Shown here one piece after another: positions 1 to 64,000 of a stretch of 64,000 nucleotides of DNA. A program made the position numbers and the translations under genes. The notes beneath the pieces are model-generated. The model was given only the letters and a program-made list of their open reading frames with translations, searched no databases and had not been told where the DNA came from. Position 1 is the first letter of the stretch; each line of letters begins with the position of its first letter. This stretch comes from an uncultured Bacteroidales bacterium. GTDB lineage: Bacteria; Bacteroidota; Bacteroidia; Bacteroidales; UBA932. Location: positions 21,804 to 85,803 of the forward strand of contig ONXC01000014.1 of assembly GCA_900321715.1 (NCBI GenBank), written 5' to 3'.

Positions 1-816
1 GACAGATGGGAGGGCCGATACGGAGAGCCATACCCCCGCCGCACCTTTGTGAATCACAGGGCTGCCGTGGCAGAGGTTTTCGGCGTTGAGATAGCCTGCG
101 ACAGAAGCACCAACCGGTACTACATAGACTCCGGGGAAAGCGCCGTGGACAGGCGTGCAGCAACGGAATACCTCATAGACACTTTCACGGTAAGGAGCCT
201 CCTCACCCTTGGGCAGGAGCGCCTCAGCGGCCGCGTGAGCGTGGAAGAAATCCCCTCCGGCCACAAATACCTCACATCCATCATGGAAGCCATGCTGGAT
301 AACGCCGTGCTCTCAATAGAATACCGCAAATACCTGAGTCCGGAAACGGACCTCAGGACCATACGCCCCTACGCCCTGAAGGAGTTTGAGAAGCGCTGGT
401 ACGTAGTTGCCTACAGTGAAAGCGCCGGGGATCTCCGCACCTTCGCCCTGGACCGCATTGCCGGCCTAAGGCGCACTGGAGACCATTTCAGGATGCCCGC
501 CGGATTCAACGTGGACACGCTCTTCCAGCAGAGTTTCGGCATCTATCTCCCGGAAGGAGAGAAGCCCGTTCTGGTGAAGATCCGCACAACTCTCCGTGAG
601 GCCGCATACCTTGAAGACCTCCCTCTCCACCCCAGCCAGATGCTTGTATCCAGGGATTCCAAATCATGCGTCTATGCCATGAGACTCATCCCCAACCCGG
701 GCTTCATCATGGAGCTGTGCAAACGCGGAGACCGCCTGGAAGTACTTGAGCCGGAGAGCCTTAGGGACTCCGTTAAGGAAGAATTGAAAAAAGCTTTGAA
801 GCAATATGAGAATTAA
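1..816 (+). CDS. WYL-domain transcriptional regulator (5' end outside window)
   Basis: The reading frame is open from base 1, so the true start lies upstream; a GTG at 49 is internal. The visible part begins with the linker that normally follows an N-terminal helix-turn-helix (a YGE..PRRTF motif) and continues into a WYL domain, with the signature WYV in KRWYVVAYS and the downstream FALDRI segment. The last ~80 residues match the C-terminal extension of this family. WYL proteins are ligand-sensing transcription factors; the ligand and target here cannot be read from the sequence. The stop codon overlaps the start of the next gene, so the two may be co-transcribed. Confidence 0.85.
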   Translation, partial: DRWEGRYGEPYPRRTFVNHRAAVAEVFGVEIACDRSTNRYYIDSGESAVDRRAATEYLIDTFTVRSLLTLGQERLSGRVSVEEIPSGHKYLTSIMEAMLDNAVLSIEYRKYLSPETDLRTIRPYALKEFEKRWYVVAYSESAGDLRTFALDRIAGLRRTGDHFRMPAGFNVDTLFQQSFGIYLPEGEKPVLVKIRTTLREAAYLEDLPLHPSQMLVSRDSKSCVYAMRLIPNPGFIMELCKRGDRLEVLEPESLRDSVKEELKKALKQYEN

Positions 817-3016
817 GTTCACCATTGCGATGGCCGCTGCCGTGTGCGCCGCCCTCGCCTGCAAACAAACACAGATGAAACCACAGCAAGGTTATATCGG
901 CCCTTCTTCAATTGAAATTACGGACGGGCATATGACTCCGGAGGTGCTCCTATCTCTTGGCCGCCTCTCGGATCCCCAGCTTTCCCCTGACGGAAAAACC
1001 ATCCTCTATGGCGTCAGCTACACTTCCATAGCGGAAAACCGCAGCGTCCGTAACCTTTTCACCATCCCCGTGGAAGGCGGTGACCCCACTCCTCTCACAA
1101 TGGACGGAAAGAGCATTTCCGGCGCCCGCTGGAGCCTTGACGGAAAATCCGTCTTCTTCCTTCAGGGAGGGAAGCTCTGGGAGGCCCCGTATAAGAACGG
1201 AAAGCTTGGGAAGCGCACACTAAGGGCCGATGTCCCCGGCGGACTTGACGATTACCTCCTTTCCCCGGACCAGTCCCAGATGATATACGTAAAAGGTGTC
1301 CACAGCCATGTGGAGGTGCCTTCAGACACTGATCCCGCCCTTGACAAGGCCAAGGCCTATGCCACGGAAGACCTAATGTACCGCCACTGGGACCATTGGC
1401 GCACGGAGATTGCCCACAGCTTTGTGGCTCCCCTTGTGAACGGGGTTGTGACTGAGGGCATGGATATCCTTGGGGAAGAAGAGCAGCTGTTTGAGCTTCC
1501 CAACGGCCCGTTCAGTGACATCGCAGACCTTTGCTGGAGCCCCGACGGCCGCTATATCGCATACTCCTGCAAGAAGCTTTCCGGCAAAGAGTACGCCTTC
1601 TCCACCAACACCTGCATCTTCATCTACTGCCCCCTCACCGGAGAAACCTCGGAGGTTACCTTCGATGGCGGCTACGACACTCACCCTGTCTGGAGCCCTG
1701 ACGGCACCCGCCTTGCATGGCTCTCCATGGAAAGGGACGGCTATGAGGCCGATAAAGTGCGCCTCATGCTTGCCGACGTAATCTACGGGGAAGACTCTGA
1801 AGGCCAGAGCGCAAACCCTGCCGTAGAGAACATCCGTGACATATCGGCCTCATTCAAATATAATGTAGACTCTCCCGTCTGGGCCGATGACAGCAAGTCC
1901 ATCTACTTCAGCGCCCTTGCAGAAGGCCTTGGCGCCGTGTACAACGTGGTGCCGGACGCAGGTGAAATCTTCCGCCTCACCGCAGACAACCTGTGGTTTG
2001 ACTTCGGGTCTCCTTTCGGCATCCAGCAGGACGGCACCCTCCTTACCACATTCATGTCCATGGACTTCCCCACGGAGCTTGTGGCAGTGAACGACAACGC
2101 CGTACGCCAGATTACCTTCGAGAACGAGCACATCCTCTCCCAGCTTGATAAGCACGAGACCGAGGCCAGGATGGTGAAGACCGTGGACGGGCAGGACATG
2201 CTCACCTGGGTCCTCTATCCCCCGCAGTTTGACCCCGCAAAGACTTACCCTGCCATTGAGATTACCCTCGGAGGCCCTCAGGGCACGCTTTCCCAGGACT
2301 GGAGCTACCGCTGGAACTACCTCCTCATGTGCCATCAGGGCTATGTGGTGGTGCTTCCCAACAGGCGCGGAACAACGGCCTTCGGGCAGCCCTGGTGCGA
2401 GCAGATTTCCGGAGACTATATCGGCCTTAATATGCAGGATTACCTCTCTGCTGCAAAGGCCATCAAGGCAGAACCCTATATCTCCGGCGTTGCGGCCTGC
2501 GGCGCTTCCTACGGCGGTTACAGCGTGTATTACCTTGCAGGTATCCACGGTGATGTCTATGACTGCTTCATAGCCCATGCGGGTATCTTCAATGAGGAGC
2601 ACATGTACATGACCACTGAGGAGATGTGGTTCCCCAACTGGGACAACGGCGGAACTCCCCTTGAGTATGCATACGCTCCCGGTCAGGTGGGCGCAGCAGG
2701 AGACGGCGTAACCTTTGGCGGCATCCAGCAGGGCGGTTCCCCCTGGAGCTCACTTCCCAAGGCCAGAAGGCACTACGACAACTCCCCTCATAAGCTGGTC
2801 CAGAACTGGCACACGCCCATTCTCTGCATCCACGGCGGCTCAGACTTCCGCGTTCCAGTGGATGAGGGCATGGCAGCCTTCAACGCCGCCCAGATGATGG
2901 GTGTTCCCTCAAAGCTCATAGTGTTCCCTGAGGAAAACCACTGGATCCTCCAGCCCCAGAACGCCCTCTACTGGCACCGCAGCTACTTCGGCTGGCTTGA
3001 CCGCTGGATGAAATAG
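806..3016 (+). CDS. S9 family (prolyl oligopeptidase/DPP type) peptidase, probable lipoprotein
   Basis: This 736-residue protein has a hydrophobic N-terminus ending in LAC, a lipobox, so it is probably an exported lipoprotein. Residues ~50-460 look like a beta-propeller with repeated WSPDG-type blades. The C-terminal alpha/beta-hydrolase domain carries the nucleophile Ser568 in GASYGG, Asp680 in GGSDFRVP and His712 in EENHW, the complete triad of family S9. Length and architecture resemble dipeptidyl-peptidase 5 or acylaminoacyl-peptidase types that trim peptides in the periplasm of Bacteroidota; exact specificity is not predictable. The ATG overlaps the end of the WYL gene by 11 bases. Confidence 0.92.
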   Translation: MRIKFTIAMAAAVCAALACKQTQMKPQQGYIGPSSIEITDGHMTPEVLLSLGRLSDPQLSPDGKTILYGVSYTSIAENRSVRNLFTIPVEGGDPTPLTMDGKSISGARWSLDGKSVFFLQGGKLWEAPYKNGKLGKRTLRADVPGGLDDYLLSPDQSQMIYVKGVHSHVEVPSDTDPALDKAKAYATEDLMYRHWDHWRTEIAHSFVAPLVNGVVTEGMDILGEEEQLFELPNGPFSDIADLCWSPDGRYIAYSCKKLSGKEYAFSTNTCIFIYCPLTGETSEVTFDGGYDTHPVWSPDGTRLAWLSMERDGYEADKVRLMLADVIYGEDSEGQSANPAVENIRDISASFKYNVDSPVWADDSKSIYFSALAEGLGAVYNVVPDAGEIFRLTADNLWFDFGSPFGIQQDGTLLTTFMSMDFPTELVAVNDNAVRQITFENEHILSQLDKHETEARMVKTVDGQDMLTWVLYPPQFDPAKTYPAIEITLGGPQGTLSQDWSYRWNYLLMCHQGYVVVLPNRRGTTAFGQPWCEQISGDYIGLNMQDYLSAAKAIKAEPYISGVAACGASYGGYSVYYLAGIHGDVYDCFIAHAGIFNEEHMYMTTEEMWFPNWDNGGTPLEYAYAPGQVGAAGDGVTFGGIQQGGSPWSSLPKARRHYDNSPHKLVQNWHTPILCIHGGSDFRVPVDEGMAAFNAAQMMGVPSKLIVFPEENHWILQPQNALYWHRSYFGWLDRWMK

Positions 3017-3029
3017 CCCGCGCTTTATG

Positions 3030-3150
3030 GTTCTCCCCTTGCGGTGGAGACCAACTATCTGATTATTAGCAACTTACGGGATTCTCTACCAGAAAAAGTT
3101 CTCCCAGAGAATCCCGTAACTTATTATGTCTCAATGGTTTAGCCTCCACC
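3030..3150 (+). repeat. 121-nt intergenic repeat, left copy (downstream of recG)
   Basis: The segment starts with GTTCTCCCCTTGCGGTGGA and ends with CCTCCACC. An element of exactly the same length lies in inverted orientation at 5325-5445, upstream of recG. Aligned without gaps by eye, 86 of 121 positions match (71%), with the first 19 identical. This copy contains a perfect 14-bp inverted repeat (TTACGGGATTCTCT at 3074-3087, complement at 3106-3119) around an 18-nt loop. The conserved ends contain GGTGGAG and CTCCACC, complementary to each other. I see no coding potential. It could be a small non-autonomous mobile element or a dispersed structured repeat. Confidence 0.75.
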
Positions 3151-3156
3151 CAAAAT

Positions 3157-5286
3157 CTATGATATCTGGGAGTAATCCTTGGTGACGTACTTATCTTTCC
3201 GTAGTTCCGCCGCCAGTGGAGCATTCTGCGGCTGCGATAGCGTAGGATCCTGGTCCAGGATGTGCTGGGCATAGCCCCTGGCATCAGAGAGAATGATGCC
3301 GTCCTTTGCAAGGGATGCAATATTTAGTGAGATGGGAAGACCGCTCTGCTGGGTACCCTCAAGGTCCCCGGGGCCGCGGAGTTTCATGTCTTCTTCGGCC
3401 AGTTCAAAACCGTTTTCAGTGGCGCAGAGAAGGTCCAGGCGCTTCTGTGACTCCTTTGAAACCTTGGTGCCCTTCATCAGGATGCAGTAGGAACGCTCTG
3501 CGCCGCGGCCCACCCTGCCCCTTAACTGGTGCAACTGGCTGAGGCCGAACCTTTCTGCGCTTTCAATCACCATCACTGAAGCGTTGGGAACGTCCACGCC
3601 CACCTCGATCACGGTGGTGGAAACCAGAATATTTGCCCTTCCGGCGGCAAAGGCGCTCATGTTGAAATCCTTCTCCTGATTGCTCTGCTGCCCGTGCACT
3701 ATTGCCACCTTGTACTGGGGCAGCGGGAACGCTTTCACTATCTCTTCATAACCCAGTTCAAGGTTCTTGTAATCCAGTTTCTCGCTCTCAAAGATGAGCG
3801 GGTAAACAATGAACGCCTGGCGTCCCTTTGCTATCTCATCCCTGATGAAATTGTGCATGGCGTGCCGCTTCCCTTCCCCCACACAGATGGTTGTGATGGG
3901 TTTTCTCCCGGGAGGCATCTCATCTATGACGGACACGTCAAGGTCTCCGTACAGGGTCATTGCCAGGGTGCGTGGAATGGGCGTTGCGGTCATAACCAGA
4001 ACGTGCGGAGGAATGCCGTTGTAGCCCTTGCTCCAGAGGCGGGCGCGCTGGTCCACGCCAAAGCGGTGCTGCTCGTCAATGACGGCAAGCCCAAGGGCCT
4101 TGAACTGAACAGTATCTTCAATGAGGGCGTGCGTGCCGATAAGCACTCCTACGCTTCCGTCCTCCAACCCCGCGTGGATGCTCCGTCGCGCCGCAGTACC
4201 GGTAGAACCGGTGAGGAGTTCCACCCTCACGCCGGTGGGCCTGAGGTACTTTGATACATTTGCAAAGTGCTGCTGTGCAAGCACTTCCGTAGGAGCCATA
4301 ATGCAGGCCTGGTAGCCGTTTCCAACAGCGATGAGGGAGCTGAGCACGGCCACCATAGTCTTTCCGGAACCAACGTCTCCCTGCAGGAGGCGGTTCATCT
4401 GATGGCCGCTTTTCATATCCTCACGGATCTCACGGATGACCCTTTTCTGGGCGCCGGTGAGTTCATACGGAAGAGCCCTGAAGCATGCGTTGAAGGCTTC
4501 CCCCACGGCCGGCATCTTAAGGCCCACGGCGCTGCTGCTCCGGATGTATTTTTGCTTGAGAAGACTCAGCTGAAGTAGGAAAAGTTCCTCGAATTTGAGC
4601 CTGTATGTAGCTTTGGCCAGAGCGTCCTGGCTTACCGGAAAATGTATTTGACGCAGTGCGTAAGTTAAAGGCACTAAACCCTTTTCTTTCAATACGTAAT
4701 CCGGAAGGGTATCCTGCAGTACCGGAAGTATTCCTTCAAGTGCAGTGCCTATGATTTTTGTCATGAACCGGCCCGTTATTCCGCCGTTTTTCAGGCGCTC
4801 CGTGGAGGTGTAGATTCCGGTAAGGGTTCCGGTGGCCGATGTATCCGGCGCATCCACTTCCGGATGCACCATATTGAGGTGATTATTGAATACGGCAGGC
4901 TTCCCGAAGAATATAAATGTGGAGCCAGGAACAAGGCGGGTGTGCATCCATTTCACGCCCTTGAAAAACACCACCTCCATCTCACCGGATTCATCGGCCA
5001 CAATGGCGCTTAGACGGGCTACAAGATTGTACTTGAGTTTGTCCGGAGGCAGTTCCGCACCGTTTTTGGCGTAGAGACGCACCTTAGTAACCGTGGCGCG
5101 AACCTGGACCTGGGCAAGATCCGGATGGATATCGGCAATGCGAACAATGCTGCTGCGGTCTATGTAGCGGAAAGGATACAGGCGCACAAGGTCCCCGACG
5201 GTAGCTATTCCAAGCTCCTTCTCAAGTAGTTCCGCCCTTTTGGGCCCGACGCCCGGGAGGTACTGTATGGCAGTGTCCAAGTTCAT
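3157..5286 (-). CDS. recG: ATP-dependent DNA helicase RecG
   Basis: RecG remodels stalled replication forks and Holliday junctions. The 709-residue protein begins with the helix-hairpin-helix-like YLPGVGPKRAELL, followed by the OB-fold wedge domain (~residues 50-150). The superfamily 2 helicase core has Walker A GDVGSGKT (303-310), the DEQH box (404-407), the TATPIPRTLAMT motif and the QLRGRVGRG motif VI, and a typical C-terminal domain follows. The length is normal. The gene stands alone on the minus strand, flanked by two inverted copies of a 121-nt repeat. A TATCTTTG box ends only six bases before its ATG, implying a very short or absent leader. Confidence 0.97.
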   Translation of the reverse strand: MNLDTAIQYLPGVGPKRAELLEKELGIATVGDLVRLYPFRYIDRSSIVRIADIHPDLAQVQVRATVTKVRLYAKNGAELPPDKLKYNLVARLSAIVADESGEMEVVFFKGVKWMHTRLVPGSTFIFFGKPAVFNNHLNMVHPEVDAPDTSATGTLTGIYTSTERLKNGGITGRFMTKIIGTALEGILPVLQDTLPDYVLKEKGLVPLTYALRQIHFPVSQDALAKATYRLKFEELFLLQLSLLKQKYIRSSSAVGLKMPAVGEAFNACFRALPYELTGAQKRVIREIREDMKSGHQMNRLLQGDVGSGKTMVAVLSSLIAVGNGYQACIMAPTEVLAQQHFANVSKYLRPTGVRVELLTGSTGTAARRSIHAGLEDGSVGVLIGTHALIEDTVQFKALGLAVIDEQHRFGVDQRARLWSKGYNGIPPHVLVMTATPIPRTLAMTLYGDLDVSVIDEMPPGRKPITTICVGEGKRHAMHNFIRDEIAKGRQAFIVYPLIFESEKLDYKNLELGYEEIVKAFPLPQYKVAIVHGQQSNQEKDFNMSAFAAGRANILVSTTVIEVGVDVPNASVMVIESAERFGLSQLHQLRGRVGRGAERSYCILMKGTKVSKESQKRLDLLCATENGFELAEEDMKLRGPGDLEGTQQSGLPISLNIASLAKDGIILSDARGYAQHILDQDPTLSQPQNAPLAAELRKDKYVTKDYSQIS

Positions 5287-5292
5287 CAGCTA

Positions 5293-5586: not shown

Positions 5587-6942
5587 ATGGACAAATTCAT
5601 CAACAATTACATCGAGGGCTTCATGGGCTCCGTTGTATCCAGGAATCCCGGTGAGAAAGAGTTCCACCAGGCAGTGAGGGAAGTTGTGGAAAGCGTAGCC
5701 CCCTTCATGATGGACTACCCCCACCTCATGGACCAGAAGATCCTGGAAAGGATTGTGGAGCCTGAGCGCATCATCATCTTCCGCGTCCCCTGGATGGACG
5801 ACCGAGGAGAGATCCAGATCAACCGCGGCTTCCGTGTCCAGTGCAATAGCGCTATCGGCCCATATAAGGGCGGTATCCGCTTCCATCCCAGCGTAAACCT
5901 CTCAATCATGAAGTTCCTCGCCTTTGAGCAGACCTTCAAAAACGCCCTCACAACCCTCCCTATGGGCGGTGCAAAGGGCGGCAGTGACTTCAATCCCCGC
6001 GGAAAGTCAGACGCAGAGGTGATGCGTTTCTGCCAGAGCTTCATGACTGAACTTTTCCGTCATATCGGCCCTAATACCGATGTCCCTGCTGGTGACATTG
6101 GCGTAGGCGGCCGTGAGATTGGCTTCCTCTTTGGCCAGTACAAGCGCCTGAGAGACGAATTCTCCGGCACCCTTACCGGCAAGGGCATTGCCTGGGGCGG
6201 CTCTCTGCTTCGTCCGGAGGCCACCGGTTACGGCCTCTGCTACTTTGCAGAGCAGATGCTTGCAACCCGCGGAGAAACCTTCGAGGGCAAGAAAGTGAAC
6301 ATTTCCGGCGCCGGCAACGTGGCCCAGTACGCAGCCCAGAAGGCAATGAGGCTTGGCGCCAAGGTCCAGACACTCTCCGACAGCGACGGCTTCATCTATG
6401 ACCCCGAAGGCCTCAACGAGGAAAAGATGGCATTTGTCCTCCAGCTTAAGAACATCCGCCGCGGCCGAATCAAGGAATACGTCCAGAAATACCCTCAGGC
6501 CCAGTATTTCCCCGGAGAACGCCCCTGGCGCATCCCCTGCGACATAGCCCTCCCCTGCGCAACTCAGAATGAGGTGGAGGTGGCCGATGCCGAGAATATC
6601 GTGAAGGGCGGAGCCATCTGCCTTGCAGAGGGCGCCAACATGCCCACCACCCCCGAGGCAATCAAGATAATCCAGGGCGCAGGCCTGCTGTACTCCCCCG
6701 GTAAGGCATCCAACGCCGGCGGCGTAGCAACTTCCGGCCTGGAGATGAGCCAGAACTCCATGCGCACAAGCTGGACCGCAGAGGAAGTGGACCAGTACCT
6801 CCGCCGCATCATGAGCGACATCCACGCCGCCTGCGTAAAATACGGCACCCGTGAAGACGGCACCGTGAATTACGTCAAGGGCGCAAACATAGCCGGTTTC
6901 ATAAAGGTTGCCGGCGCCATGGCCGATCAAGGACTTGTATAG
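5587..6942 (+). CDS. gdhA: Glutamate dehydrogenase, hexameric class I (probably NADP-dependent)
   Basis: The enzyme interconverts 2-oxoglutarate plus ammonia and glutamate and is the main ammonia-assimilation route in many Bacteroidales. The 451-residue protein shows the substrate-binding segment PYKGGIRFHPSV, the catalytic-lysine region PMGGAKGGSDF, and the nucleotide-binding fold with GAGNVAQYAAQ. Length and the N-terminal NNYIEGFM segment fit the small hexameric type. The cofactor is inferred from family resemblance and not proven. It is the first gene of a long plus-strand run; only six bases separate it from the next gene. Confidence 0.96.
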   Translation: MDKFINNYIEGFMGSVVSRNPGEKEFHQAVREVVESVAPFMMDYPHLMDQKILERIVEPERIIIFRVPWMDDRGEIQINRGFRVQCNSAIGPYKGGIRFHPSVNLSIMKFLAFEQTFKNALTTLPMGGAKGGSDFNPRGKSDAEVMRFCQSFMTELFRHIGPNTDVPAGDIGVGGREIGFLFGQYKRLRDEFSGTLTGKGIAWGGSLLRPEATGYGLCYFAEQMLATRGETFEGKKVNISGAGNVAQYAAQKAMRLGAKVQTLSDSDGFIYDPEGLNEEKMAFVLQLKNIRRGRIKEYVQKYPQAQYFPGERPWRIPCDIALPCATQNEVEVADAENIVKGGAICLAEGANMPTTPEAIKIIQGAGLLYSPGKASNAGGVATSGLEMSQNSMRTSWTAEEVDQYLRRIMSDIHAACVKYGTREDGTVNYVKGANIAGFIKVAGAMADQGLV

Positions 6943-25023: not shown

Positions 25024-25845
25024 TTACTTTTCCAAACGGGATTTAATCCTTTTTCTAAGCCCCGGAGAGAGTGAGAGATTCTCAAGGGAATCGGCCATAT
25101 CCAGCCATTTTGCGGCCATCTCGTAGTCTTCCAGGAGGTAGAACGCCATGGCAATGTTATAGGATGCCGAAGCCCTTTTGATGGCGCTTCCCTCCTTCAC
25201 AAACTGAGTCCATACGTCTATGGCCTTCCCGAACTTATTCTCATAGGCAAGTTTGAGGGCCTTCTCCCAGGTGTAGGAATTAAAGTCGTCAAAATAATAC
25301 AGGCTGAAGCTCTCTGTCTTCCAGGTGGAGAGGAAGCGGGTGGCTACGCGGCTTCCCACTTTCTCGGCTTCGTCGGAAAGGTCCGAGGCTGCGTCCTTGG
25401 GCGTAAGGAAGGCGTTTCCCTTGAATCTATGGACCTTGTCCTCACCCATGCTGTCGTAGACGCTGAGATTGGTCCTGAGGGGCAGGCGGGCCTGATTGTC
25501 GGGCATGCCGATTACCGATGACATCAGGAACACTACATCGGCCTCGGTATCCATCACAAGGGAATGCATCAGGTCAAGGGTGACTGTATCGGCCGCAGGG
25601 ACACGGAACATCTGCACCACTTCATCTCCGCCGAAGTAATCCTGCTCCAGCACGCGGGCCATGGCCGATGCCGAGTTCCGGTCGAAGGTAGAGTCGGGAG
25701 TTTCCATGGTCACGATGGCCATGGATTTACGGGCAAGGTCCAGTCCTGACGGCGACGGTTGCCTGACATCAAGGACAAGCGAATACACCTGGGGTGAGCA
25801 GGAGACCGCGAAGATCGCAAGAAGCGGGAAAAGGAGTTTTTTCAT
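25024..25845 (-). CDS. DUF6340 family lipoprotein
   Basis: The 273-residue protein has a lipoprotein signal (LLAIFAVSCSP) and is exported. The N-terminal two thirds match the Bacteroidota family DUF6340. The C-terminal ~90 residues contain a helical TPR-like repeat (FGKAIDVWTQFVKEG, ASYNIAMAFYLLEDYEMAAKWLDMAD). Function is unknown; the TPR region suggests a protein-binding role in the envelope. Its start overlaps the rimO stop (ATGA arrangement), so it is translated as the last gene of the nusB-rimO cluster. Confidence 0.85.
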   Translation of the reverse strand: MKKLLFPLLAIFAVSCSPQVYSLVLDVRQPSPSGLDLARKSMAIVTMETPDSTFDRNSASAMARVLEQDYFGGDEVVQMFRVPAADTVTLDLMHSLVMDTEADVVFLMSSVIGMPDNQARLPLRTNLSVYDSMGEDKVHRFKGNAFLTPKDAASDLSDEAEKVGSRVATRFLSTWKTESFSLYYFDDFNSYTWEKALKLAYENKFGKAIDVWTQFVKEGSAIKRASASYNIAMAFYLLEDYEMAAKWLDMADSLENLSLSPGLRKRIKSRLEK

Positions 25846-37909: not shown

Positions 37910-39232
37910 CTATCTTCTGAATCTTGACATCTGCTGCATGAGGGAGCCGGTGACGGCGCCCTTCATGAGTTTTCGGGTGCCCTCGAACTGCTTCAGGAGC
38001 TTGTTCACATCTGGGAGGGTGGTACCGGAGCCATCGGCAATCCTCTTGCGGCGGGAGCCGTTGATTGCCTCAGGGTGCTCCCTCTCATAGGGAGTCATGG
38101 AAAGGATTATGGCTTCTGTAGACTTGAAGGCGTCGTCCGGGATATCCACATCCTTCATGGCCTTGTCCATACCTGGAATCATGCCTGCAAGGTCCTTGAT
38201 GTTACCCATCTTCTTGACCTGCTGGATCTGCTGATAGAAATCCCAGAGGGTGAACTGGTCCTTGGCAAGTTTTTTCTTGAGGGCACGGGCCTCTTTTTCG
38301 TCGTACTGCTCCTGGGCCTTCTCAACAAGGGAAACAACGTCTCCCATGCCAAGGATACGGTCTGCCACACGCTCAGGGTGGAAGACGTCAAGAGCTTCAA
38401 GTTTTTCTCCGGAAGAGACAAACTTGATGGGCTTTCCTACCACGGCCTTGATGGAAAGGGCTGCACCGCCGCGGGTGTCACCGTCCATCTTGGTGAGGAC
38501 AACGCCGTCAAAGTCCAGGCGGTCGTTGAACACCCTTGCGGTTTCCACGGCATCCTGACCTGTCATTGCATCCACCACAAAGAGGGTTTCAGTAGGGTTC
38601 AGGGCCTTATGTAGGGCCGATATCTCATTCATCAGCTCATCATCCACGGCAAGGCGGCCGGCGGTATCCACAATCACTACGGGGAAGCCTTCTGCCTTGG
38701 CTTTCTTCACAGCCTCCTGGGCAATCCTGATGGGATCCTTCTCCCCTTCAATTGTGAAAACTGGAACCTCAATGCTATCTCCCAGCACTTTCAACTGCTC
38801 GATGGCGGCTGGACGGAAGGTGTCGCAGGCTGCAAGAAGGACTTTCATTCCCTTCTTGGACTTGAGGTGAAGGGCAAGCTTTGCGCTGAAGGTAGTCTTA
38901 CCGGAACCGTTGAGACCCGCAACCAGAACAATGCCGGGATTTCCCTTAATGTTGATCTCCTGGGCCGATGAACCCATGAAATCGGCCAGCTCATCCCTCA
39001 TGATCTTGACCATCATCTGCTGGGGCTTCACGGCGGTAAGCACACCGGTGCCTATGGCTTTGTCCTTCACGCGGTTACAGAAATCTTTTGCAACCTTATA
39101 GCTTACATCGGCATCCAGAAGGGCCTTGCGGATGTCCTTGACGGTTTCCGCTATGTTGATCTCAGTTATTTTTCCTTCTCCCTTGAGGATCTTGAAAGAC
39201 CTCTCAAGTCTCTCTTGCAGGTTCTCGAACAT
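37910..39232 (-). CDS. ffh: Signal recognition particle protein Ffh
   Basis: Ffh binds signal sequences of nascent membrane proteins and delivers ribosomes to FtsY. The 440-residue protein has the N domain, the GTPase P-loop in AGLNGSGKTTFSAKLALH, DTAGRLAVDDELM, TKMDGDTRGGAALS and a C-terminal M domain with the RNA-binding GSRRKRIADGSGT. The length is typical. A TATATTTG box lies 18 bases upstream of the ATG. Confidence 0.97.
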   Translation of the reverse strand: MFENLQERLERSFKILKGEGKITEINIAETVKDIRKALLDADVSYKVAKDFCNRVKDKAIGTGVLTAVKPQQMMVKIMRDELADFMGSSAQEINIKGNPGIVLVAGLNGSGKTTFSAKLALHLKSKKGMKVLLAACDTFRPAAIEQLKVLGDSIEVPVFTIEGEKDPIRIAQEAVKKAKAEGFPVVIVDTAGRLAVDDELMNEISALHKALNPTETLFVVDAMTGQDAVETARVFNDRLDFDGVVLTKMDGDTRGGAALSIKAVVGKPIKFVSSGEKLEALDVFHPERVADRILGMGDVVSLVEKAQEQYDEKEARALKKKLAKDQFTLWDFYQQIQQVKKMGNIKDLAGMIPGMDKAMKDVDIPDDAFKSTEAIILSMTPYEREHPEAINGSRRKRIADGSGTTLPDVNKLLKQFEGTRKLMKGAVTGSLMQQMSRFRR

Positions 39233-43785: not shown

Positions 43786-45771
43786 ATGGCAAACAAAGGA
43801 CAGATTGGTGTAACCACGGAAAACATATTTCCGGTTATCAAGCAGTTTCTTTACAGTGACCACGAGATTTTCCTTCGGGAACTTGTGGCAAACGCAGTTG
43901 ACGCAACCCAGAAGATCAAGGCCCTGGCCGCTTCCGGAGACTGCAAGGAGGAACTTGGAGACCTCAAGGTCCACATTGAACTGGATGAAAAGGCCAAGAC
44001 CCTGAAAATTATCGATAACGGTATCGGCATGACTGAGGAGGAGGTTGACAAATACATCAACCAGATTGCCTTCTCCAGCGCCGGAGAGTTCCTTGAGAAG
44101 TACAAGGATCAGATCCAGAATATCATCGGCCACTTTGGCCTTGGATTCTACAGCGCCTTCATGGTTTCAAAGAAGGTGACCATTGAAACGCTATCCTGGA
44201 AGGAGGGCGCAAAGGCCGTGAAATGGACCTGCGACGGTTCTCCTGAATACACCATGGAGGAATGTGACAAGGCCGATAGAGGAACCGTCATCACCCTTTA
44301 CCTTGACGACGATTCCTCTGAATACGCAGAGAAATCCCGCATAGAGGCCCTTCTCCAGAAATACTGCAAGTTCATGCCAGTTCCCATCGTCTTTGGAAAG
44401 GAGCAGGAATGGAAGGACGGAAAGTACGTGGACACGGATAAGGACAAGGTCATCAACTCAGTGGAGCCCCTCTGGACCAAGGCACCTTCAGAGCTCAAGG
44501 ACGAGGATTACCTTGGATTCTACCGCACCCTCTTCCCCATGAACGAGGAGCCGCTTTTCTGGATTCACCTCAACGTGGACTATCCTTTCAACCTCACCGG
44601 AATCCTCTACTTCCCTAAACTGAAGGACCGCGTGGCGGTAGAGCGCAACAAGATCTCCCTCTACTGCAACCAGATGTTCGTGACAGACCACGTGGACAAC
44701 ATAGTCCCTGACTTCATGACCCTCCTTCACGGCGTCATTGACTCTCCGGACATTCCTCTTAACGTGAGCCGCAGCTATCTCCAGAGCGACGCAGCGGTGA
44801 AGAAGATCTCCACCTACATCACAAAGAAGGTTGCAGACCGCCTGGAAGGCATCTTCAAGGATGAAAGGGAGCAGCTGGAAGCCAAGTGGGACAACCTCAA
44901 GCTGTTCATAGAGTACGGCATGCTCTCCGATGAAAAGTTCTGCGAGAGAGCCCTCAAATTTGCACTCCTCAAGAATGTGGAAGGCAAGTTCTTCAGCTTT
45001 GATGAGTACAAGGAGGCCGTAAAGGACGCCCAGACAGACAAGGACAAGAAGCTTGTGTATCTGTATGCCACAAAGGCCGATGACCAGTACGCCTACATCC
45101 AGGCCGCAAAGGACAAGGGCTATGACGTCCTCCTGATGGACTGCGAGCTTGACGCCCACTACGTGAATCTCCTGGAGCAGAAACTCACTGACACCCGCTT
45201 TGCCCGCGTGGACTCCGACGCCGTTGAGAACCTCATCCCCAAGGAAGACAAGGTTAAGCTTGAGATGAAGGAAGACGAGCGCTATGACCTTGAGAACATG
45301 TTCAAGGCCGTTCTCCCGGAAGGCAACGACTACTTTGTCCAGGGAGACAACCTTGGCGCAGAATCGGCCCCCGTCCTTATCACCCAGAACGAATTCATGC
45401 GCCGTTACCGTGAGATGAGCGCCCTTGGCGGCGGAATGAACTTCTACGGAGAAATGCCAAAGAGCTACAACATAACCGTGAATATGGAGAACCCTCTGGT
45501 GGCAAAGATATGGGCTTCCAAGAAGGCCGATGTGCAGCCTCAGGGAGAGCTTCCCGCCGAGGCTCCTTCAGATGCCCCCGAGGAAGAGAAGACCAAGGCG
45601 CGCGAAGCCCGCGAGGCTGTCCGCAAGGCCCACAGGGCCGATGTAGAGGCCTTTGCTCATGCCAATGACCTCCTGCATCAGATTGCAGACCTTGCCCTCC
45701 TCTCCAACGGCATGCTGAAGGGCAAGGCCCTCAGCGATTTCATCGCAAGAAGCTACGCCATCATGAAATAA
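43786..45771 (+). CDS. htpG: Molecular chaperone HtpG (Hsp90)
   Basis: The 661-residue protein has the GHKL ATPase motifs ELVANAVDATQKI, DNGIGMTEEEV and GHFGLGFYSAFMVS. The middle domain follows (FPMNEEPLFWIHLNVDYPF, RNKISLYCNQMFVTD), and the C-terminal dimerisation domain is long and charged. The length is typical for Bacteroidota. No Bacteroidota -7 box is visible upstream; instead there are two copies of a GCCAATATGGC palindrome. GGGTGCACC palindromes flank the gene on both sides, with acyl-CoA synthetase paralogues beyond them. Confidence 0.97.
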   Translation: MANKGQIGVTTENIFPVIKQFLYSDHEIFLRELVANAVDATQKIKALAASGDCKEELGDLKVHIELDEKAKTLKIIDNGIGMTEEEVDKYINQIAFSSAGEFLEKYKDQIQNIIGHFGLGFYSAFMVSKKVTIETLSWKEGAKAVKWTCDGSPEYTMEECDKADRGTVITLYLDDDSSEYAEKSRIEALLQKYCKFMPVPIVFGKEQEWKDGKYVDTDKDKVINSVEPLWTKAPSELKDEDYLGFYRTLFPMNEEPLFWIHLNVDYPFNLTGILYFPKLKDRVAVERNKISLYCNQMFVTDHVDNIVPDFMTLLHGVIDSPDIPLNVSRSYLQSDAAVKKISTYITKKVADRLEGIFKDEREQLEAKWDNLKLFIEYGMLSDEKFCERALKFALLKNVEGKFFSFDEYKEAVKDAQTDKDKKLVYLYATKADDQYAYIQAAKDKGYDVLLMDCELDAHYVNLLEQKLTDTRFARVDSDAVENLIPKEDKVKLEMKEDERYDLENMFKAVLPEGNDYFVQGDNLGAESAPVLITQNEFMRRYREMSALGGGMNFYGEMPKSYNITVNMENPLVAKIWASKKADVQPQGELPAEAPSDAPEEEKTKAREAREAVRKAHRADVEAFAHANDLLHQIADLALLSNGMLKGKALSDFIARSYAIMK

Positions 45772-51836: not shown

Positions 51837-51896
51837 AGCATTTTTCTGCATAGAACAAATTTTTACGGCTTTTTTTTAAATTTTTTGCGAAATAAG

Positions 51897-51904
51897 TATC
51901 TTTG
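51897..51904 (+). promoter_or_regulatory. uvrB -7 box (TATCTTTG)
   Basis: TATCTTTG ends 16 bases before the uvrB ATG at 51921. An in-frame ATG at 51885 lies upstream of this box and is therefore unlikely to be used. Confidence 0.7.
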
Positions 51905-51920
51905 TAAAAAGTCCCAGAGA

Positions 51921-54116
51921 ATGAATTTCAAGCTCAATTCGCCATACTCCCCCTCCGGAGATCAGCCGGAAGCCATAGACCAGCTATGCAGCGCCCTCAG
52001 TCAGGGCGTGCAGGATGTCACTCTGCTTGGCGTAACAGGATCCGGCAAAACTTTCACAATGGCAAACGTGATCCAGAGGCTCCAGAGGCCGGCACTCATC
52101 CTCAGCCACAACAAAACCCTGGCCGCCCAGCTTTACGGTGAATTCAAGGCTTTCTTCCCTGAAAACGCCGTGGAGTACTTTGTATCCTATTATGATTATT
52201 ACCAGCCGGAGGCATACATTCCCACCACGGACACCTATATTGAGAAGGACCTGAGCATCAACGACAAAATTGACGAGCTTCGTGTAAGCGCAGCATCGGC
52301 CCTTATGAGCGGAAGAAGGGATGTCATTGTCATCAGCTCCGTCTCCTGCCTATACGGTATTGGCAACCCCGACGATTTCCATGACCAGACCGTCACCGTC
52401 CATAAGGGAGAGCGAATGTCCATGACCCGCCTCCTCTACAAGATAGTGGACGCACTCTACTACCGCACGGAGACTGATTTCAAGCGCGGCAGCTTCCGCG
52501 TACGCGGGGATACAGTGGATATCTTCCTGGGAGGGGCCGATTACGCCGCCCGCATAGAGTTCTTCGGGGACGAGGTTGACCGGATTGCCCTCATAGACCC
52601 CGTCACGGGGGCCATCTTCGAGGAAATGGAGAAGATTGACCTTTACCCCGCAAAGAACTTCGTAACCTCCAAGGAAAAGGGCGCAAAGGCCGTGAGCCAG
52701 ATCCAGGACGACCTTGTGAAGCAGGTGGAGTACTTTGAGTCAATTGGCAAATACCTTGAGGCTAAACGCCTGAAACAGAGGGTGGAATACGACATAGAGA
52801 TGATAAAGGAGATGGGCTACTGCCCTGGCGTTGAGAACTATTCCCGTTACTTTGACGGGAGAAAGCCCGGCCAGCGTCCCTTCACCCTCATAGACTACTT
52901 CCCCAAGGATTTCCTGGTGTTCATAGACGAGTCCCACGTCACCCTCCCCCAGATCCGCGCAATGTATGGCGGAGACCACTCCCGCAAGGAAACCCTGGTG
53001 GAATACGGTTTCCGCCTCCCCGCCGCCAGTGACAACCGTCCCCTCACATTTGACGAATTCGAATCCATAACCGGCCAGACGGTATACGTGAGCGCCACTC
53101 CGGCCGATTATGAGCTTGAGAAGTCCGAAGGCCTTGTGGTGGAGCAGATCGTGCGCCCCACCGGCCTCCTGGACCCTCCCATCGAGGTCCGTCCCACCAA
53201 AAACCAGGTGGACGACCTTATGGAAGAAATCCGTGTAAGGGCCGAAAGGGACGAAAGAGTGCTTGTGACCACCCTCACCAAGCGCATGGCCGAGGAACTG
53301 GACAGCTACTTCCAGAAGGCCGGCATCCGCTGCAGGTATATCCACTCGGACGTAGACACGGCGGAACGCGTAGAGATCATAGAAGATTTCAAGAACGGCC
53401 TCTTTGACGTACTTATCGGCGTAAACCTCCTGAGGGAAGGCCTGGACATCCCCACCGTATCCCTTGTGGCCATTCTGGATGCCGATAAAGAAGGGTTCCT
53501 CCGGAGCGGACGCGCCCTTACCCAGACCGCCGGCCGCGCAGCCCGTAACCTCAACGGCCTTGTGATAATGTATGCCGATTCAGTTACGGAATCCATGGAC
53601 GAGACAATCCGTGAAACCGCCCGCCGCCGTAAGAAGCAGCAGGAATACAACAAGCTCCACGGCATCACGCCAAAGCAGGTTGCGGCCCATGCCAATCCTC
53701 TTATGACGGAACTGGTGCGTTCCGGAGACGACACAACCCACGTGTCCGGCTTCCTGAACCCGGTACTCCAGAACAGCGTCACCGGCCATGTAAGCGCCAG
53801 AGACAGCGTCTCCAACCCGGAATACGTGCCATCGGCCTCAGAACTTGGAAAGGGAGATGTCAAGGTGGGCCTTGGCCACGACGCCCGGAGGGAATCTTCA
53901 TCGGCCTATGTTGACGGCTATATTGCCGCAGACCTTGCCGCCGTGCTCCAGGATCCCGTCATACGCTCCATGTCCCGTGAACAGGTGGAGAAAGCCGCCG
54001 AAGAAGCCAAACGAAAGATGCAGAAAGCTGCAGCGGACCTTGATTTCACCGCCGCCGCCCGTTACCGCGACGAGATGTGGGCCCTGCAGGAATACCTGAA
54101 AGTCTGGAAGGTCTGA
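51921..54116 (+). CDS. uvrB: Excinuclease ABC subunit B
   Basis: UvrB verifies DNA damage in nucleotide excision repair. The 731-residue protein has the Walker [17 protein letters not shown], the beta-hairpin region around [21 protein letters not shown], the [19 protein letters not shown] and QTAGRAARN motifs, and a C-terminal UVR helix pair. It is about 60 residues longer than usual: a low-complexity stretch (~residues 600-670) lies between the helicase end and the UVR motif. The start follows a TATCTTTG box. It ends back to back with the Rel gene. Confidence 0.97.
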
Positions 54117-57232: not shown

Positions 57233-57236
57233 AACC

Positions 57237-60964: not shown

Positions 60965-61015
60965 AATTGATTTTTTAGAAAAAACTAGTAGTTAAACATT
61001 ATGTTTTGTGCCTCA

Positions 61016-61033
61016 TCGCACATACCCGTGCGA
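61016..61033 (-). promoter_or_regulatory. Hairpin in the rpsA leader
   Basis: TCGCAC and GTGCGA form a perfect 6-bp stem with a 6-nt loop near the 5' end of the predicted rpsA transcript. Ribosomal protein S1 is autoregulated in other bacteria, so an RNA control element is conceivable, but I see no known motif. Confidence 0.4.
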
Positions 61034-61036
61034 ATT

Positions 61037-61738: not shown

Positions 61739-63618
61739 AGCACAAGCTGGTACTTGTAGTTGCCGTTGCCGGTGTCTTCAGTGGCCTCGTGGTACCACTG
61801 GAGCTTGTTGCCGGTCTTCTTCCATGCGGTAGGGAATACCTGGTCCCCTTCAGGCATCTGGAGGAAACCACCCTCGGCATTGTAGAAAACTTTGCGCTTG
61901 CCGTCAGAGGAGGTCCAGCTGGCGCTCTTGGGTGAAGAGGCGTCCTTGCGCTTGCCGTTGAGCTTCTGGAATTCCTCGTCAGAAACGGGGCTCCAGCTTC
62001 CGCCGGAGAAGTGGTAAACCTTACCGTCCTCATCCATTGAGTAGATGTGCTTGCCGCTGCCGATGGCGTCAAAATCGGCCTGACCAAATACGGCGAATTC
62101 CGGCCACCATGGGCGTACGCTCTTGCCACCGACCTTGGCGGCACTCACATTAATCTCACGCACGATTTCCTCCTTGTACATCTTGGGATAGTTTGAAGGG
62201 AACTCGCTATAAGCCTCGGCCAGGATGTCACCGGCCTGGATAACAACGTTGAGCGGCTCACGGTAAAGGGCGCACTCAGGGATAAGGCCGTCCTCAATGG
62301 CCTGACGGTTGATCTTGATAATCTTTCCAAGGGATTCCTTGCGGGCGTTGAAACGCTTCTGGACGTCCTCTACCCACACCTTTGCAGCGCGCTCACGATA
62401 GCTCATAATGCGCTCCAGGGCCTGGGCGTAAAGCGGATTGTAAACGGAAGGATCCTCAGTCTGGTATATCTTATTCTTGATTTCAATGAGTTTCTTGCGC
62501 TCGGATGCGGCAAAGTTCACGTCGGCCGTAGCGTCCTTGAGATCATAGCAAGCCTGGATATCCTGTATGTACTTGGACATCTTGACCTGCATATCGTTAA
62601 TACCGGCGGTCTTCTGGTTCATCTTTTCCATCATGTCCATAGCCGAGCCCATACCGCCCATCATTGAACGGGAGCTCTTCTGCTGGGCAAGCTTCTGCTC
62701 TTCCATGAAGCGCTTCTGGAAAGCATCGGCCTCCTTCTTGAAGGAAGGATCTTTGGCCGATTGGGCTTTCTGATATGCCTCCATCTTCTTGTTGCAGGCC
62801 TGCATCTTGGGACTGGCCTCCATATAGTTGGAAGAGGTCATCTGCTCACGGGCGGCGGCCTTCAGTTCAAACACCTCAAGACCCATATACTTGCGAATAT
62901 CGGAAGCATTGCGGTCATAAACCTGGAATGTTGCCTCCAGGGACTTCTCCGACATCATCTTTACGGCGTCGGCCTCTGACATATTCTCATATCTGGCGGC
63001 ATCGGCCTCAAGGGCGCTCACGTCAAGGTCTCCAAGGATTGACTTCTCAATCTTCTGGGAGACGCGCTCCTTGTCTGCCTCCGAAGCATTGTCGTCTGTG
63101 AGGATGGCAACCTCCGCGTCTGTAAGGCCAAAGGCCGATTTGAGGCCGTCGTTGGCCTTCTTGCGCCACATTAGGGTTTCCGCGTCCTCGCAGGTTGCGT
63201 CCTCATTGAGTTCTTCTGCGCGGATGGTGACGGCCTTGATGGCTTTGTAATAAGCTATCTGATTGGCCTCAACGGGGTTAATGAGTTCCTGGGCGCTAGG
63301 CACTGCCGGGAATTCATTCATCAGAGGAATGGGGAATTTGGCCGATGAAGGGGTAACCGGGCCGTCCCAGCCAAAGGTGCTGGCACGCTTTGCAGGAAGG
63401 GCCTGCTCTCCGGTGACGACATTGACGGAATTGGGATCATCGTTATCCTGACCGGCCATCTGGGACATTCCTTCAGGGATCATTCCCTGCATGGTTTCAC
63501 CAAGTGAACCGCCAATGGCGCTTTCTGCTTTCTGCTTGATCTTGTCAAGGAAACTCTGGGCCTGGGCCTGGCCGCAGATGAGGGCCAGGGCGGCAATAAT
63601 TATGGTAATACGTTTCAT
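61720..63618 (-). CDS. Exported protein of unknown function, 632 residues
   Basis: I do not recognise a named family. The protein has a clear signal peptide (LALICGQAQA-QS). Residues ~100-380 are helical and charged, with Met/Gln-rich stretches and probable coiled coil (QKFMEEQ-like segments near 300). The last ~110 residues form a beta-rich module with repeated short strands (KHIYSMDEDGKVYHFSGGSW, SDGKRKVFYNAEGGFLQMP), ending in QLVLCTYML. It is preceded by an OmpA-domain gene three bases away and followed by an overlapping lysozyme-like gene, which suggests a periplasmic role at the cell wall. Confidence 0.8.
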   Translation of the reverse strand: MKRITIIIAALALICGQAQAQSFLDKIKQKAESAIGGSLGETMQGMIPEGMSQMAGQDNDDPNSVNVVTGEQALPAKRASTFGWDGPVTPSSAKFPIPLMNEFPAVPSAQELINPVEANQIAYYKAIKAVTIRAEELNEDATCEDAETLMWRKKANDGLKSAFGLTDAEVAILTDDNASEADKERVSQKIEKSILGDLDVSALEADAARYENMSEADAVKMMSEKSLEATFQVYDRNASDIRKYMGLEVFELKAAAREQMTSSNYMEASPKMQACNKKMEAYQKAQSAKDPSFKKEADAFQKRFMEEQKLAQQKSSRSMMGGMGSAMDMMEKMNQKTAGINDMQVKMSKYIQDIQACYDLKDATADVNFAASERKKLIEIKNKIYQTEDPSVYNPLYAQALERIMSYRERAAKVWVEDVQKRFNARKESLGKIIKINRQAIEDGLIPECALYREPLNVVIQAGDILAEAYSEFPSNYPKMYKEEIVREINVSAAKVGGKSVRPWWPEFAVFGQADFDAIGSGKHIYSMDEDGKVYHFSGGSWSPVSDEEFQKLNGKRKDASSPKSASWTSSDGKRKVFYNAEGGFLQMPEGDQVFPTAWKKTGNKLQWYHEATEDTGNGNYKYQLVLCTYML

Positions 63619-63621
63619 AGT

Positions 63622-64000
63622 TTACTTTTTAACGAATTCAACCCTACGGTTCTTGGCGCGGCCTTCGTCAGTGCTGTTGGATGCGATGGGAACATGCGAA
63701 CCCTTGCCAACAGGGGTAAGGCGGGCCTGGGCAATTCCCTGCTCAACCAGGGCGGCCACAATGGCCTCTGCACGTTTCTGGGACAGAGGATCGTTCACCT
63801 TGTCAGAGCCGGTGGCGTCGCAGTGGCCCTGGACCTCGAAGGAGATGCCGGGGTTATCCTGCATAAGCTTTGCTATGCGGTTGATTTCTATCATTGACTC
63901 AGGCTTAAGGTCTGCCTTGCCGGTTTCAAAAGTAATGGCATAGGTGATGATCTTGCCGTCTGAAGAGAGGCGGTCATATAGCGGAACGGCACCCTTTGCC
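63622..64000 (-). CDS. OmpA-domain protein (5' end outside window)
   Basis: The frame is open to the end of the window, so the N-terminus is missing. The visible ~125 residues are an OmpA C-terminal peptidoglycan-binding domain: ITFETGKADLKPESMIEI, VQGHCDATGSDKVNDPLSQK, RAEAIVAALVEQGI and the NRRVEFVKK end. The Asp and Arg residues that bind diaminopimelate appear present. It lies three bases before the unknown 632-residue gene, so the two should be co-expressed. Confidence 0.9.
   Translation of the reverse strand, partial: AKGAVPLYDRLSSDGKIITYAITFETGKADLKPESMIEINRIAKLMQDNPGISFEVQGHCDATGSDKVNDPLSQKRAEAIVAALVEQGIAQARLTPVGKGSHVPIASNSTDEGRAKNRRVEFVKK

What the first reader, a model, noticed from the sequence alone, without database searches (positions are those of the whole stretch)
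1..64000. Heptamer GGCCGAT/ATCGGCC about tenfold over-represented on both strands
Reading the whole window I counted about 56 GGCCGAT and 61 ATCGGCC (hand count, perhaps 10 off), one per ~550 bp. For a sequence near 56% GC I would expect about 11. Near neighbours are rare: GGCCGAC/GTCGGCC about a dozen, GGCCGAA a handful. The motif ignores coding strand and frame: in plus genes it appears both as Ala-Asp GCC GAT and as Ser-Ala TCG GCC or Ile-Gly ATC GGC. The base before GGCCGAT is seldom C. It is absent from pckA and the OmpA gene (50557-51765) and occurs once in rpsA. Examples: 13, 896, 1225, 1747, 9420, 22441, 22921, 49921, 63001. Density resembles DNA uptake sequences, HIP1-type iterated motifs or Chi. 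I know of no such motif described for this group.
Basis: seen in the sequence. Interest (0 to 1): 0.85.

Follow-up and report, generated by a model that had tools for sequence, protein, structure and literature searches.

The report
Seven-letter DNA word peppering rumen bacteria
A group of uncultured gut bacteria carries one exact seven-letter DNA word about every 600 letters, far more often than chance or codon use explains and conserved site by site between close relatives, which suggests that the cells read it as a mark of their own DNA, although what reads it is unknown.

Summary
The window holds 57 GGCCGAT and 61 ATCGGCC against 10.7 expected; the 2.04 Mb assembly holds 3,279 against 226 for the reversed word. 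Codon shuffling in 596 ORFs predicts 179 coding copies, 1,286 are found; noncoding DNA is ten-fold enriched. Copies are strand-symmetric, randomly spaced and bounded at 7 bp. High density marks one clade of gut Bacteroidales near Candidatus Cryptobacteroides; two sister lineages are intermediate. Against a relative at 91% identity 175 of 203 copies are intact (86%; all 7-mers 56%) and gains equal losses. Codon excess and reduced loss roughly fit one per-site advantage, 2Nes about 2-4. None of four methyltransferase families tested is shared by the 14 clade genomes tested, no pilus-type ATPase passes the cut-off in them, and no Chi-like strand bias is seen; ComEC and AddB-like proteins occur in every genome searched. 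It behaves like an uptake sequence or HIP1 but meets the definition of neither. Best guess: a self-DNA mark read in DNA import or recombination; that function is inferred.

The parts
1..64000 (.). 118 exact copies of the motif (57 GGCCGAT on +, 61 on -); every position is listed in the full report
13..19 (+). GGCCGAT copy
896..902 (-). motif copy (reads ATCGGCC on +)
4834..4840 (+). motif copy inside recG (ORF 3157-5286, - strand)
   Evidence: recG named by NCBIfam
4993..4999 (-). motif copy inside recG
5854..5860 (-). motif copy inside the glutamate dehydrogenase gene (ORF 5587-6942)
25663..25669 (+). motif copy, ORF 25024-25845
26460..26466 (-). motif copy inside rimO (ORF 25842-27143)
38615..38621 (+). 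motif copy inside ffh (ORF 37910-39232)
44125..44131 (-). motif copy inside htpG (ORF 43786-45771)
52295..52301 (-). motif copy inside uvrB (ORF 51885-54116)
63001..63007 (-). motif copy (reads ATCGGCC on +)

Best explanation
GGCCGAT is a clade-specific, genome-wide iterated DNA motif. Each copy is kept, and new copies are created, by selection or a selection-like drive of strength about 2Nes = 2-4 per site, independent of strand and frame and nearly independent of neighbouring copies. SHOWN: the excess, its DNA-level nature, the 7-bp boundary, the near-restriction to one clade, balanced gains and losses, the reduced loss between close relatives. INFERRED: a sequence-specific DNA-binding protein reads it. 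INFERRED, and the reading I commit to: it works as a self-DNA mark in the way uptake sequences or Chi-type sites do. Conspecific DNA carrying the word is preferentially imported, spared or recombined, so alleles with the word replace alleles without it.
For: Codon shuffle: 1,286 coding copies vs 179 expected; by context TCG|GCC 413 vs 11.7, GCC|GAT 550 vs 78, ATC|GGC 245 vs 76; noncoding 106 vs 10.7. The word fills 245 of 331 (Ile-Gly), 550 of 994 (Ala-Asp), 413 of 1,154 (Ser-Ala) and 53 of 281 (Gly-Arg) of the places where the protein sequence allows it. In stretches of four relatives (the genomes of L031-L034) codons inside copies are kept far more than the same codons outside: GAT 116/122 vs 483/696, TCG 68/70 vs 65/113, GCC 191/196 vs 1512/1802; the identity profile rises at the seven bases only. 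S from codon odds (2.25 Ile-Gly, 2.68 Ala-Asp, 4.00 Ser-Ala, 3.14 Gly-Arg) predicts relative loss of 0.26, 0.20, 0.075, 0.14; ratios that I compute are 0.16 (GAT), 0.16 (GCC), 0.07 (TCG), 0.32 (ATC), and 0 of 61 lost (GGC). Gains 26, losses 28 against G333, with 17 single-base losses of eleven kinds. Lineages differ in the version used (L057/L058 favour TGCCGAT; L036 uses GGCCGAA as much as GGCCGAT, small samples), which recalls the DUS dialects of Neisseriaceae (abstract of PMC3630211). ComEC in 27 of 27 genomes, AddB-like protein in 31 of 31. A competent member of Bacteroidota, Riemerella columbina, prefers its own DNA (PMC7965970 section 16). Genes with GC3 below 0.5, as recent arrivals may have, carry the word in 8 of 82 allowed places against 1,253 of 2,678 in the rest.
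Against: No receptor was identified and no uptake or recombination data exist. Type IV pilus/T2S ATPases (PF00437) pass the cut-off in 0 of 14 clade genomes (12 of the 14 show weak sub-cut-off matches to one 80-residue stretch), so the classical uptake machine was not found. ComEC and AddB are equally present outside the clade, so neither explains the clade restriction. An uptake mark should show diminishing returns between nearby copies; the effect found is weak and not monotonic (logit -0.105 per other copy within 500 bp, interval -0.178 to -0.045, n = 2,450) and spacing is Poisson. No Chi-like strand bias. Against more distant clade members single copies are kept no better than some control words (137 of 499). 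Seven bases without conserved flanks is shorter than known uptake sequences (recalled). The low-GC3 result may reflect codon usage rather than foreign origin.
Confidence: 0.4

Rival explanations
1. HIP1-like methylation/repair ratchet: a modification of the motif biases mismatch repair so that mutations creating it are kept and those destroying it are repaired, without any benefit of the motif itself.
For: Copies are placed almost independently of each other; the best tolerated variants sit at the two ends of the word, G1>T and T7>A, like the end-biased deviations reported for HIP1 (PMC4390886 section 13; ratchet model in section 18).
Against: None of four methyltransferase families is common to the clade: matches over the cut-off in 3 of 14 clade genomes for PF00145, 6 of 14 for PF02384, 3 of 14 for PF01555, 9 of 14 for PF07669; the densest genome, G341, has none of the four. 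The word is not a palindrome. MAG gaps and untested families leave room.
Confidence: 0.15
2. Chi-like site of the AddAB helicase-nuclease, without import: it protects broken chromosomes and marks self against foreign DNA.
For: AddB-like protein in 31 of 31 genomes; PDDEXK_1 proteins in 27 of 27, two of them in 22; high density; versions of the word differ between lineages.
Against: No significant strand bias in any contig examined (C15 163/170, C10 155/161, C21 72/79), whereas known Chi sites are biased (recalled). AddB is as common outside the clade, and its identities fall off gradually.
Confidence: 0.2
3. Architectural site: thousands of weak sites for a nucleoid-associated protein, with additive benefit.
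For: Random spacing, both strands, coding and noncoding, near independence between copies.
Against: No periodicity beyond the codon period of 3 stood out; no protein identified; the clade restriction needs a new protein.
Confidence: 0.15
4. Very-short-patch-like repair or another single mutation bias creates the word from a C-to-T neighbour.
For: GGTCGAT and GACCGAT are depleted (0.23 and 0.20 of codon-shuffle expectation).
Against: The depletion is general to CGA (GGTCGAG 0.02, GGTCGAA 0.39, GACCGAG 0.29, TCGA 0.23); single-base losses fall in eleven classes; the C5 methyltransferase family is missing from 11 of 14 clade genomes, G000 among them.
Confidence: 0.03
5. By-product of codon or dinucleotide usage.
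For: Ala-Asp and Ile-Gly contexts use common codons (codon-shuffle expectations of 78 and 76 copies).
Against: Codon-shuffle ratio about 7, noncoding ratio about 10, TCG|GCC 35-fold.
Confidence: 0.01

Closest known systems
DNA uptake sequences (DUS of Neisseriaceae, USS of Pasteurellaceae)
   Same: Non-palindromic short word, both strands equally, thousands of copies, lineage dialects (abstract of PMC3630211), perfect copies far in excess over one-off copies (passages of PMC1939737).
   Different: Only 7 bp with no conserved flanks; no type IV pilus ATPase over the cut-off in 14 clade genomes; no uptake evidence; one-off copies as a whole are not in excess (the 21 neighbours sum to 2,334 observed and 2,438 expected), whereas single-mismatch uptake sequences are reported as over-represented.
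HIP1 and alternate HIP motifs of cyanobacteria
   Same: Iterated word about once per kilobase, clade-bound, deviations biased to the end positions (PMC4390886 abstract and sections 13, 18).
   Different: Not a palindrome; no clade-shared methyltransferase among four families tested; different phylum.
Chi sites (RecBCD/AddAB)
   Same: Short GC-rich word, over-represented, AddAB-type enzyme present.
   Different: No strand bias; enrichment and per-site constraint much stronger than I recall for Chi.

Membership tests
DNA uptake sequence (DUS/USS) | Promotes uptake or transformation of DNA that carries it | not testable with these tools
   needs a cultured strain
DNA uptake sequence (DUS/USS) | Thousands of non-palindromic copies on both strands, not explained by codons | tested here: met
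   3,279 copies, 1,662/1,617; codon shuffle
DNA uptake sequence (DUS/USS) | Type IV pilus or related secretion ATPase for uptake | tested here: not met
   PF00437 over the cut-off in 0 of 14 clade genomes and 4 of 13 others; weak sub-cut-off matches in 12 of the 14; the genomes are incomplete
DNA uptake sequence (DUS/USS) | Inner-membrane channel ComEC | tested here: met
   27 of 27 genomes, so not specific to the clade
DNA uptake sequence (DUS/USS) | Diminishing return between neighbouring copies (expected, not strictly defining) | tested here: inconclusive
   weak negative effect, Poisson spacing
HIP1 | Palindromic word | tested here: not met
   GGCCGAT is not its own reverse complement
HIP1 | Cognate orphan methyltransferase in the carriers | tested here: not met
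   none of PF00145, PF02384, PF01555, PF07669 is shared by the 14 clade genomes; other families untested
HIP1 | Density near one per kilobase, clade-restricted | tested here: met
   two sister lineages are intermediate
Chi site | Orientation bias along replication arms | tested here: not met
   21 contigs of G000, whole or in part: none departs significantly from 50:50; GC skew of this genome is weak, so replication arms could not be drawn
Chi site | RecBCD/AddAB present | tested here: met
Chi site | Word changes the activity of the enzyme | not testable with these tools
   biochemistry needed
VSP-repair over-representation | Specific depletion of the T:G-derived neighbour and a C5 methyltransferase | tested here: not met
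   the Vsr family itself was not searched

The most novel reading that the evidence does not exclude
A self-DNA recognition code in Bacteroidales that works without type IV pili and without a DNA methyltransferase shared by its carriers: an unknown protein reads a bare 7-bp word, and its changing preference (KGCCGAW variants) sets species dialects and so barriers to gene exchange among rumen species. The same process may have purged CGA/TCG elsewhere in the genome, which would sharpen the code.
Probability: 0.3. Interest if true: 0.9.

Novelty: new variant of a known kind. Interest (0 to 1): 0.77.

Why it matters
Genome-wide iterated motifs are rare, and those whose reader is known (DUS, Chi) illuminated transformation and recombination. 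This one lies in an uncultured gut lineage of a phylum for which my searches found no such motif in print (open-access library only). It has measurable per-site selection or drive, is spread over about 40 sampled species genomes with differing versions, and the known machinery was not found. It makes the open question of why such words accumulate (selection, drive or repair bias) testable with existing metagenomic population data.

Tried and rejected
Codon usage and composition: rejected by codon shuffling. VSP-like repair: looked attractive because GGTCGAT and GACCGAT are depleted, rejected when the depletion proved general to CGA and the loss spectrum proved broad. C5, N6 (HsdM), N6/N4 and Eco57I methyltransferases as the common cause: sporadic in and outside the clade. 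Chi polarity: none. Extended consensus: none beyond 7 bp after codon correction (GGCCGATC is only 2.5x, but CGATC is itself 0.25x). Helical or longer periodicity: none clear. AddB divergence as a sign of a Chi switch: identities fall off gradually, nothing special at the clade (read from identities only, no tree built). Lipobox-bearing and SusC-like genes, picked by simple patterns, are only slightly poorer in motif (171 of 418 and 16 of 44 allowed places against 1,074 of 2,298). Ser-Ala sites with the motif lie at less conserved protein positions (7 sites, mean pair conservation 0.17, against 22 sites, 0.59, p = 0.03), but Ala-Asp (13 and 11 sites, p = 0.77) and Ile-Gly (5 and 2, p = 0.67) do not show it; three tests, so suggestive at most. 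Not tested: Vsr, Dnd phosphorothioation, D12 (Dam) methyltransferases, phage avoidance of the word, whole-genome gene content. Literature searches. Papers seen: PMC4390886 abstract, outline, section 13 and part 1 of 2 of section 18; PMC1939737 12 of 48 passages; PMC7965970 8 passages and section 16; PMC2843746 6 passages; PMC3630211 abstract and outline; all others as search listings only. Statements about Chi bias, DUS/USS lengths and the Vsr system are recalled.
Full report
OBSERVATION. In the 64-kb window GGCCGAT occurs 57 times and ATCGGCC 61 times, 118 in all, against 10.7 from a dinucleotide model; it is the most over-represented 7-mer under that model. Positions of the first base, + strand reading GGCCGAT: 13, 1225, 1747, 1882, 4834, 6582, 6921, 7680, 9420, 10212, 12402, 13662, 14601, 14955, 17266, 17787, 19145, 20131, 20509, 20608, 22441, 22921, 25663, 26775, 27446, 27759, 27853, 28551, 28944, 30167, 33132, 33639, 38615, 38963, 40027, 42250, 43204, 44271, 45075, 45525, 45636, 47866, 48169, 49921, 50353, 51156, 52535, 53102, 54597, 55551, 56123, 58185, 58353, 61525, 62755, 63133, 63340; reading ATCGGCC: 896, 1843, 2420, 4993, 5854, 6064, 7914, 8791, 9804, 11346, 13095, 13771, 15270, 15994, 17119, 17431, 18816, 19070, 20179, 23147, 25090, 25537, 25588, 26460, 27691, 27814, 27907, 28250, 29915, 32607, 33202, 33448, 34531, 35268, 35559, 37157, 37697, 38981, 39478, 40012, 40321, 40721, 42284, 43001, 43752, 44125, 45363, 47262, 47714, 52295, 53831, 53900, 56091, 56510, 56684, 58597, 60005, 61427, 62074, 62725, 63001.

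WHOLE GENOME. The assembly that holds the window (G000, 2,044,722 bases, 29 contigs, 80.6% complete) has 1,662 + 1,617 = 3,279 copies; the word read backwards has 226. In the 812 kb of G000 that I held (21 contigs, whole or in part) GGCCGAT has 1,397 copies against 232 under a third-order model, the top 7-mer; TGCCGAT (453) and GGCCGAA (302) are secondary.

NOT CODON USAGE. In 596 ORFs called by a script of mine, synonymous codon shuffling within genes (20 shuffles) predicts 89 + 90 copies; 617 (coding strand) + 669 (template strand) occur. By context: G|GCC|GAT 550 vs 78, ATC|GGC|C 245 vs 76, A|TCG|GCC 413 vs 11.7, GGC|CGA|T 54 vs 2.8; the two contexts that split the word otherwise are rare (13 vs 8.0 and 11 vs 2.1). 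Control words TAGCCGG and CCGGCTA come out at 0.86 and 0.93 of expectation. Noncoding DNA holds 106 against 10.7. Counting only places where the amino acids allow the word, it fills 245 of 331 Ile-Gly, 550 of 994 Ala-Asp, 413 of 1,154 Ser-Ala and 53 of 281 Gly-Arg places.

ANATOMY. Spacing is that of random placement (1,375 gaps, mean 561, CV 1.04). Orientation is balanced: the long contigs stand at 163/170 (C15), 155/161 (C10) and 72/79 (C21), the largest departures are the short stretches C2 11/4 and C4 13/23 (p = 0.12 and 0.13), and orientation does not follow GC skew (Spearman 0.09, p = 0.57). Flanks add nothing clear after codon correction. Divergent intergenic regions hold fewer copies (13 in 16,065 bp) than convergent ones (27 in 15,851). 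Genes with GC3 under 0.5 carry the word in 8 of 82 allowed places against 1,253 of 2,678 in the rest.

DISTRIBUTION. Within the genus counts range from 103 to 3,333 (36 genus relatives). In a draw of 295 genomes of the order, G000 included, no genome outside the genus exceeds about 400 per Mb by my arithmetic on the listed, rounded sizes (G214, 920 in 2.3 Mb), against 1,604 per Mb in G000. RecG relatives with record titles are MAGs of Bacteroidales, many titled as rumen, forestomach or faecal, several Candidatus Cryptobacteroides (80 kept of 429). On a RecG tree of 57 of these 80 loci plus the window, 39 rows have at least 5 copies per 10 kb; 38 of them fall in one supported clade of 40 rows. 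The two clade rows under that line are L038, a 3.4-kb contig, and L077 (4.9); the 39th row is L078 (5.0), outside; L067, next to the clade, has 0.9. The tool counts 4 changes of the label on the tree, so the clade is not perfectly clean. Whole-genome counts for 42 genomes: the 27 that I place in the clade have 1,273-4,066 copies; of the 15 others 13 have 188-621, the genome of L108 754 and that of L078 1,425. So two sister lineages are intermediate, and the onset may be older or gradual.

CONSERVATION. G000 against G333 (104,852 aligned bases, 90.75% identity): 175 of 203 copies intact (86%), against 56% for all 7-mers; the word ranks second of 29 frequent 7-mers, the first being an overlapping shift of itself. 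28 copies are only in G000, 26 only in G333. The 17 single-base losses are of eleven kinds; single-base changes make up 61% of changed copies against 68% for all 7-mers, so one-off intermediates are not specially rare. In smaller samples 26 of 27, 24 of 27 and 22 of 24 copies are intact in G332, G331 and G334. Pooled over the four relatives (so some copies count more than once), codons kept when the amino acid is kept, inside versus outside copies: GCC 191/196 vs 1512/1802, GAT 116/122 vs 483/696, TCG 68/70 vs 65/113, ATC 55/58 vs 1114/1330, GGC 61/61 vs 1547/1813, CGA 4/4 vs 9/36; noncoding motif bases 82 of 83 identical against 92.9% of others. The identity profile is codon-periodic outside and 0.95-0.99 on the seven bases. 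Against more distant clade members single copies turn over: 137 of 499 kept, within the range of the seven control words (0.05-0.38).

A SINGLE NUMBER ROUGHLY FITS. If a copy has advantage S = 2Nes, equilibrium odds rise by exp(S) and losses fall to S/(exp(S)-1). Codon odds give S = 2.25 (Ile-Gly), 2.68 (Ala-Asp), 4.00 (Ser-Ala), 3.14 (Gly-Arg), predicting relative losses of 0.26, 0.20, 0.075, 0.14. From the ratios are 0.16 for GAT, 0.16 for GCC, 0.07 for TCG, 0.32 for ATC and 0 of 61 for GGC. Frequency and divergence, two separate measurements, thus agree in size. This does not separate selection from an equivalent drive. Copies are nearly independent: others within 500 bp lower the odds slightly (logit -0.105 each, -0.178 to -0.045, local GC in the model), and the raw fractions for 0, 1, 2, 3 and 4 or more neighbours are 0.44, 0.53, 0.51, 0.50, 0.38.

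MACHINERY. On a panel of 27 genomes (14 clade, 13 not), matches over the family cut-off: C5 methyltransferase PF00145 in 3 and 2; PF02384 in 6 and 6; PF01555 in 3 and 6; PF07669 in 9 and 6; ComEC in all; PDDEXK_1 in all; PilB/PilT-type ATPase PF00437 in 0 and 4, with weak sub-cut-off matches in most genomes. AddB of G000 has a counterpart in 31 of 31 genomes searched. These MAGs are incomplete, so single absences mean little; the patterns over the panel mean more.

VERSIONS OF THE WORD. In loci of 22 to 125 kb per lineage, against dinucleotide expectation: L036 has GGCCGAT 24, GGCCGAA 29, TGCCGAA 19; L057/L058 have TGCCGAT 42 and GGCCGAT 30; L041/L042/L051/L061 have GGCCGAA 74 and GGCCGAT 69. 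TGCCGAA is also 2.3-fold in the loci outside the clade, so part of that excess is background.

CGA AVOIDANCE. In G000 CGA/TCG falls far below the codon-shuffle expectation (TCGA 0.23, GCGA 0.35, CGAG 0.31; GTCGAC 2 vs 136), while CCGAT is 1.55. CGA o/e with the motif masked: G000 0.49, G333 0.55, clade loci pooled (L067 included) 0.74, outside loci 0.89; across 56 loci it falls with motif density (Spearman -0.70), within the clade less (-0.40, n = 39). It may be the other face of the same process; unexplained.

READING. A sequence-recognised, per-site favoured word that shifts between sister lineages is best explained by a DNA-binding reader. Among known systems the pattern is nearest to uptake sequences and HIP1; each fails at least one defining feature here. 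I commit to a self-DNA mark acting in DNA import or end-processing (0.4), with Chi-only (0.2), HIP-like ratchet (0.15) and architectural site (0.15) as rivals. The only precedent in the phylum that I found is preferential uptake of own DNA by Riemerella columbina, whose mark is unknown (PMC7965970 section 16).

Noticed in passing
genome stretches L131-L170 and window: CGA/TCG is strongly avoided (TCGA 0.23 of codon-shuffle expectation, GTCGAC 2 vs 136) except inside the motif; the avoidance is weaker in sister lineages.
   Followed up: partly
genome stretches L131-L170; one copy at window 44227: GTCGCAGGT, 64 copies in 812 kb against 2.3 expected, 55 noncoding, often in tandem (22 bp) and inverted (25 and 36 bp) pairs: looks like a REP-type intergenic element.
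   Followed up: partly
L036, L041/L042/L051/L061, L057/L058: Sister lineages use other versions of the word as much or more: GGCCGAA in L036 and in L041/42/51/61, TGCCGAT in L057/58 (small samples).
   Followed up: partly
window, whole: GTCTATG/CATAGAC is also over-represented (32 vs 5.0 expected).
   Followed up: no
G358, G364, G366, G368: Strong type II/IV secretion ATPase matches occur in four of 13 genomes outside the motif clade and in none of 14 inside it.
   Followed up: no
L078 (G363) and L108 (G371): Sister lineages outside the clade with intermediate whole-genome counts (1,425 and 754): possible early or parallel stage.
   Followed up: no
G000 contig C12 (L142:14034-16796 and around): AddB-like protein, ComEC and a second PDDEXK_1 match lie within about 20 kb of each other.
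   Followed up: no
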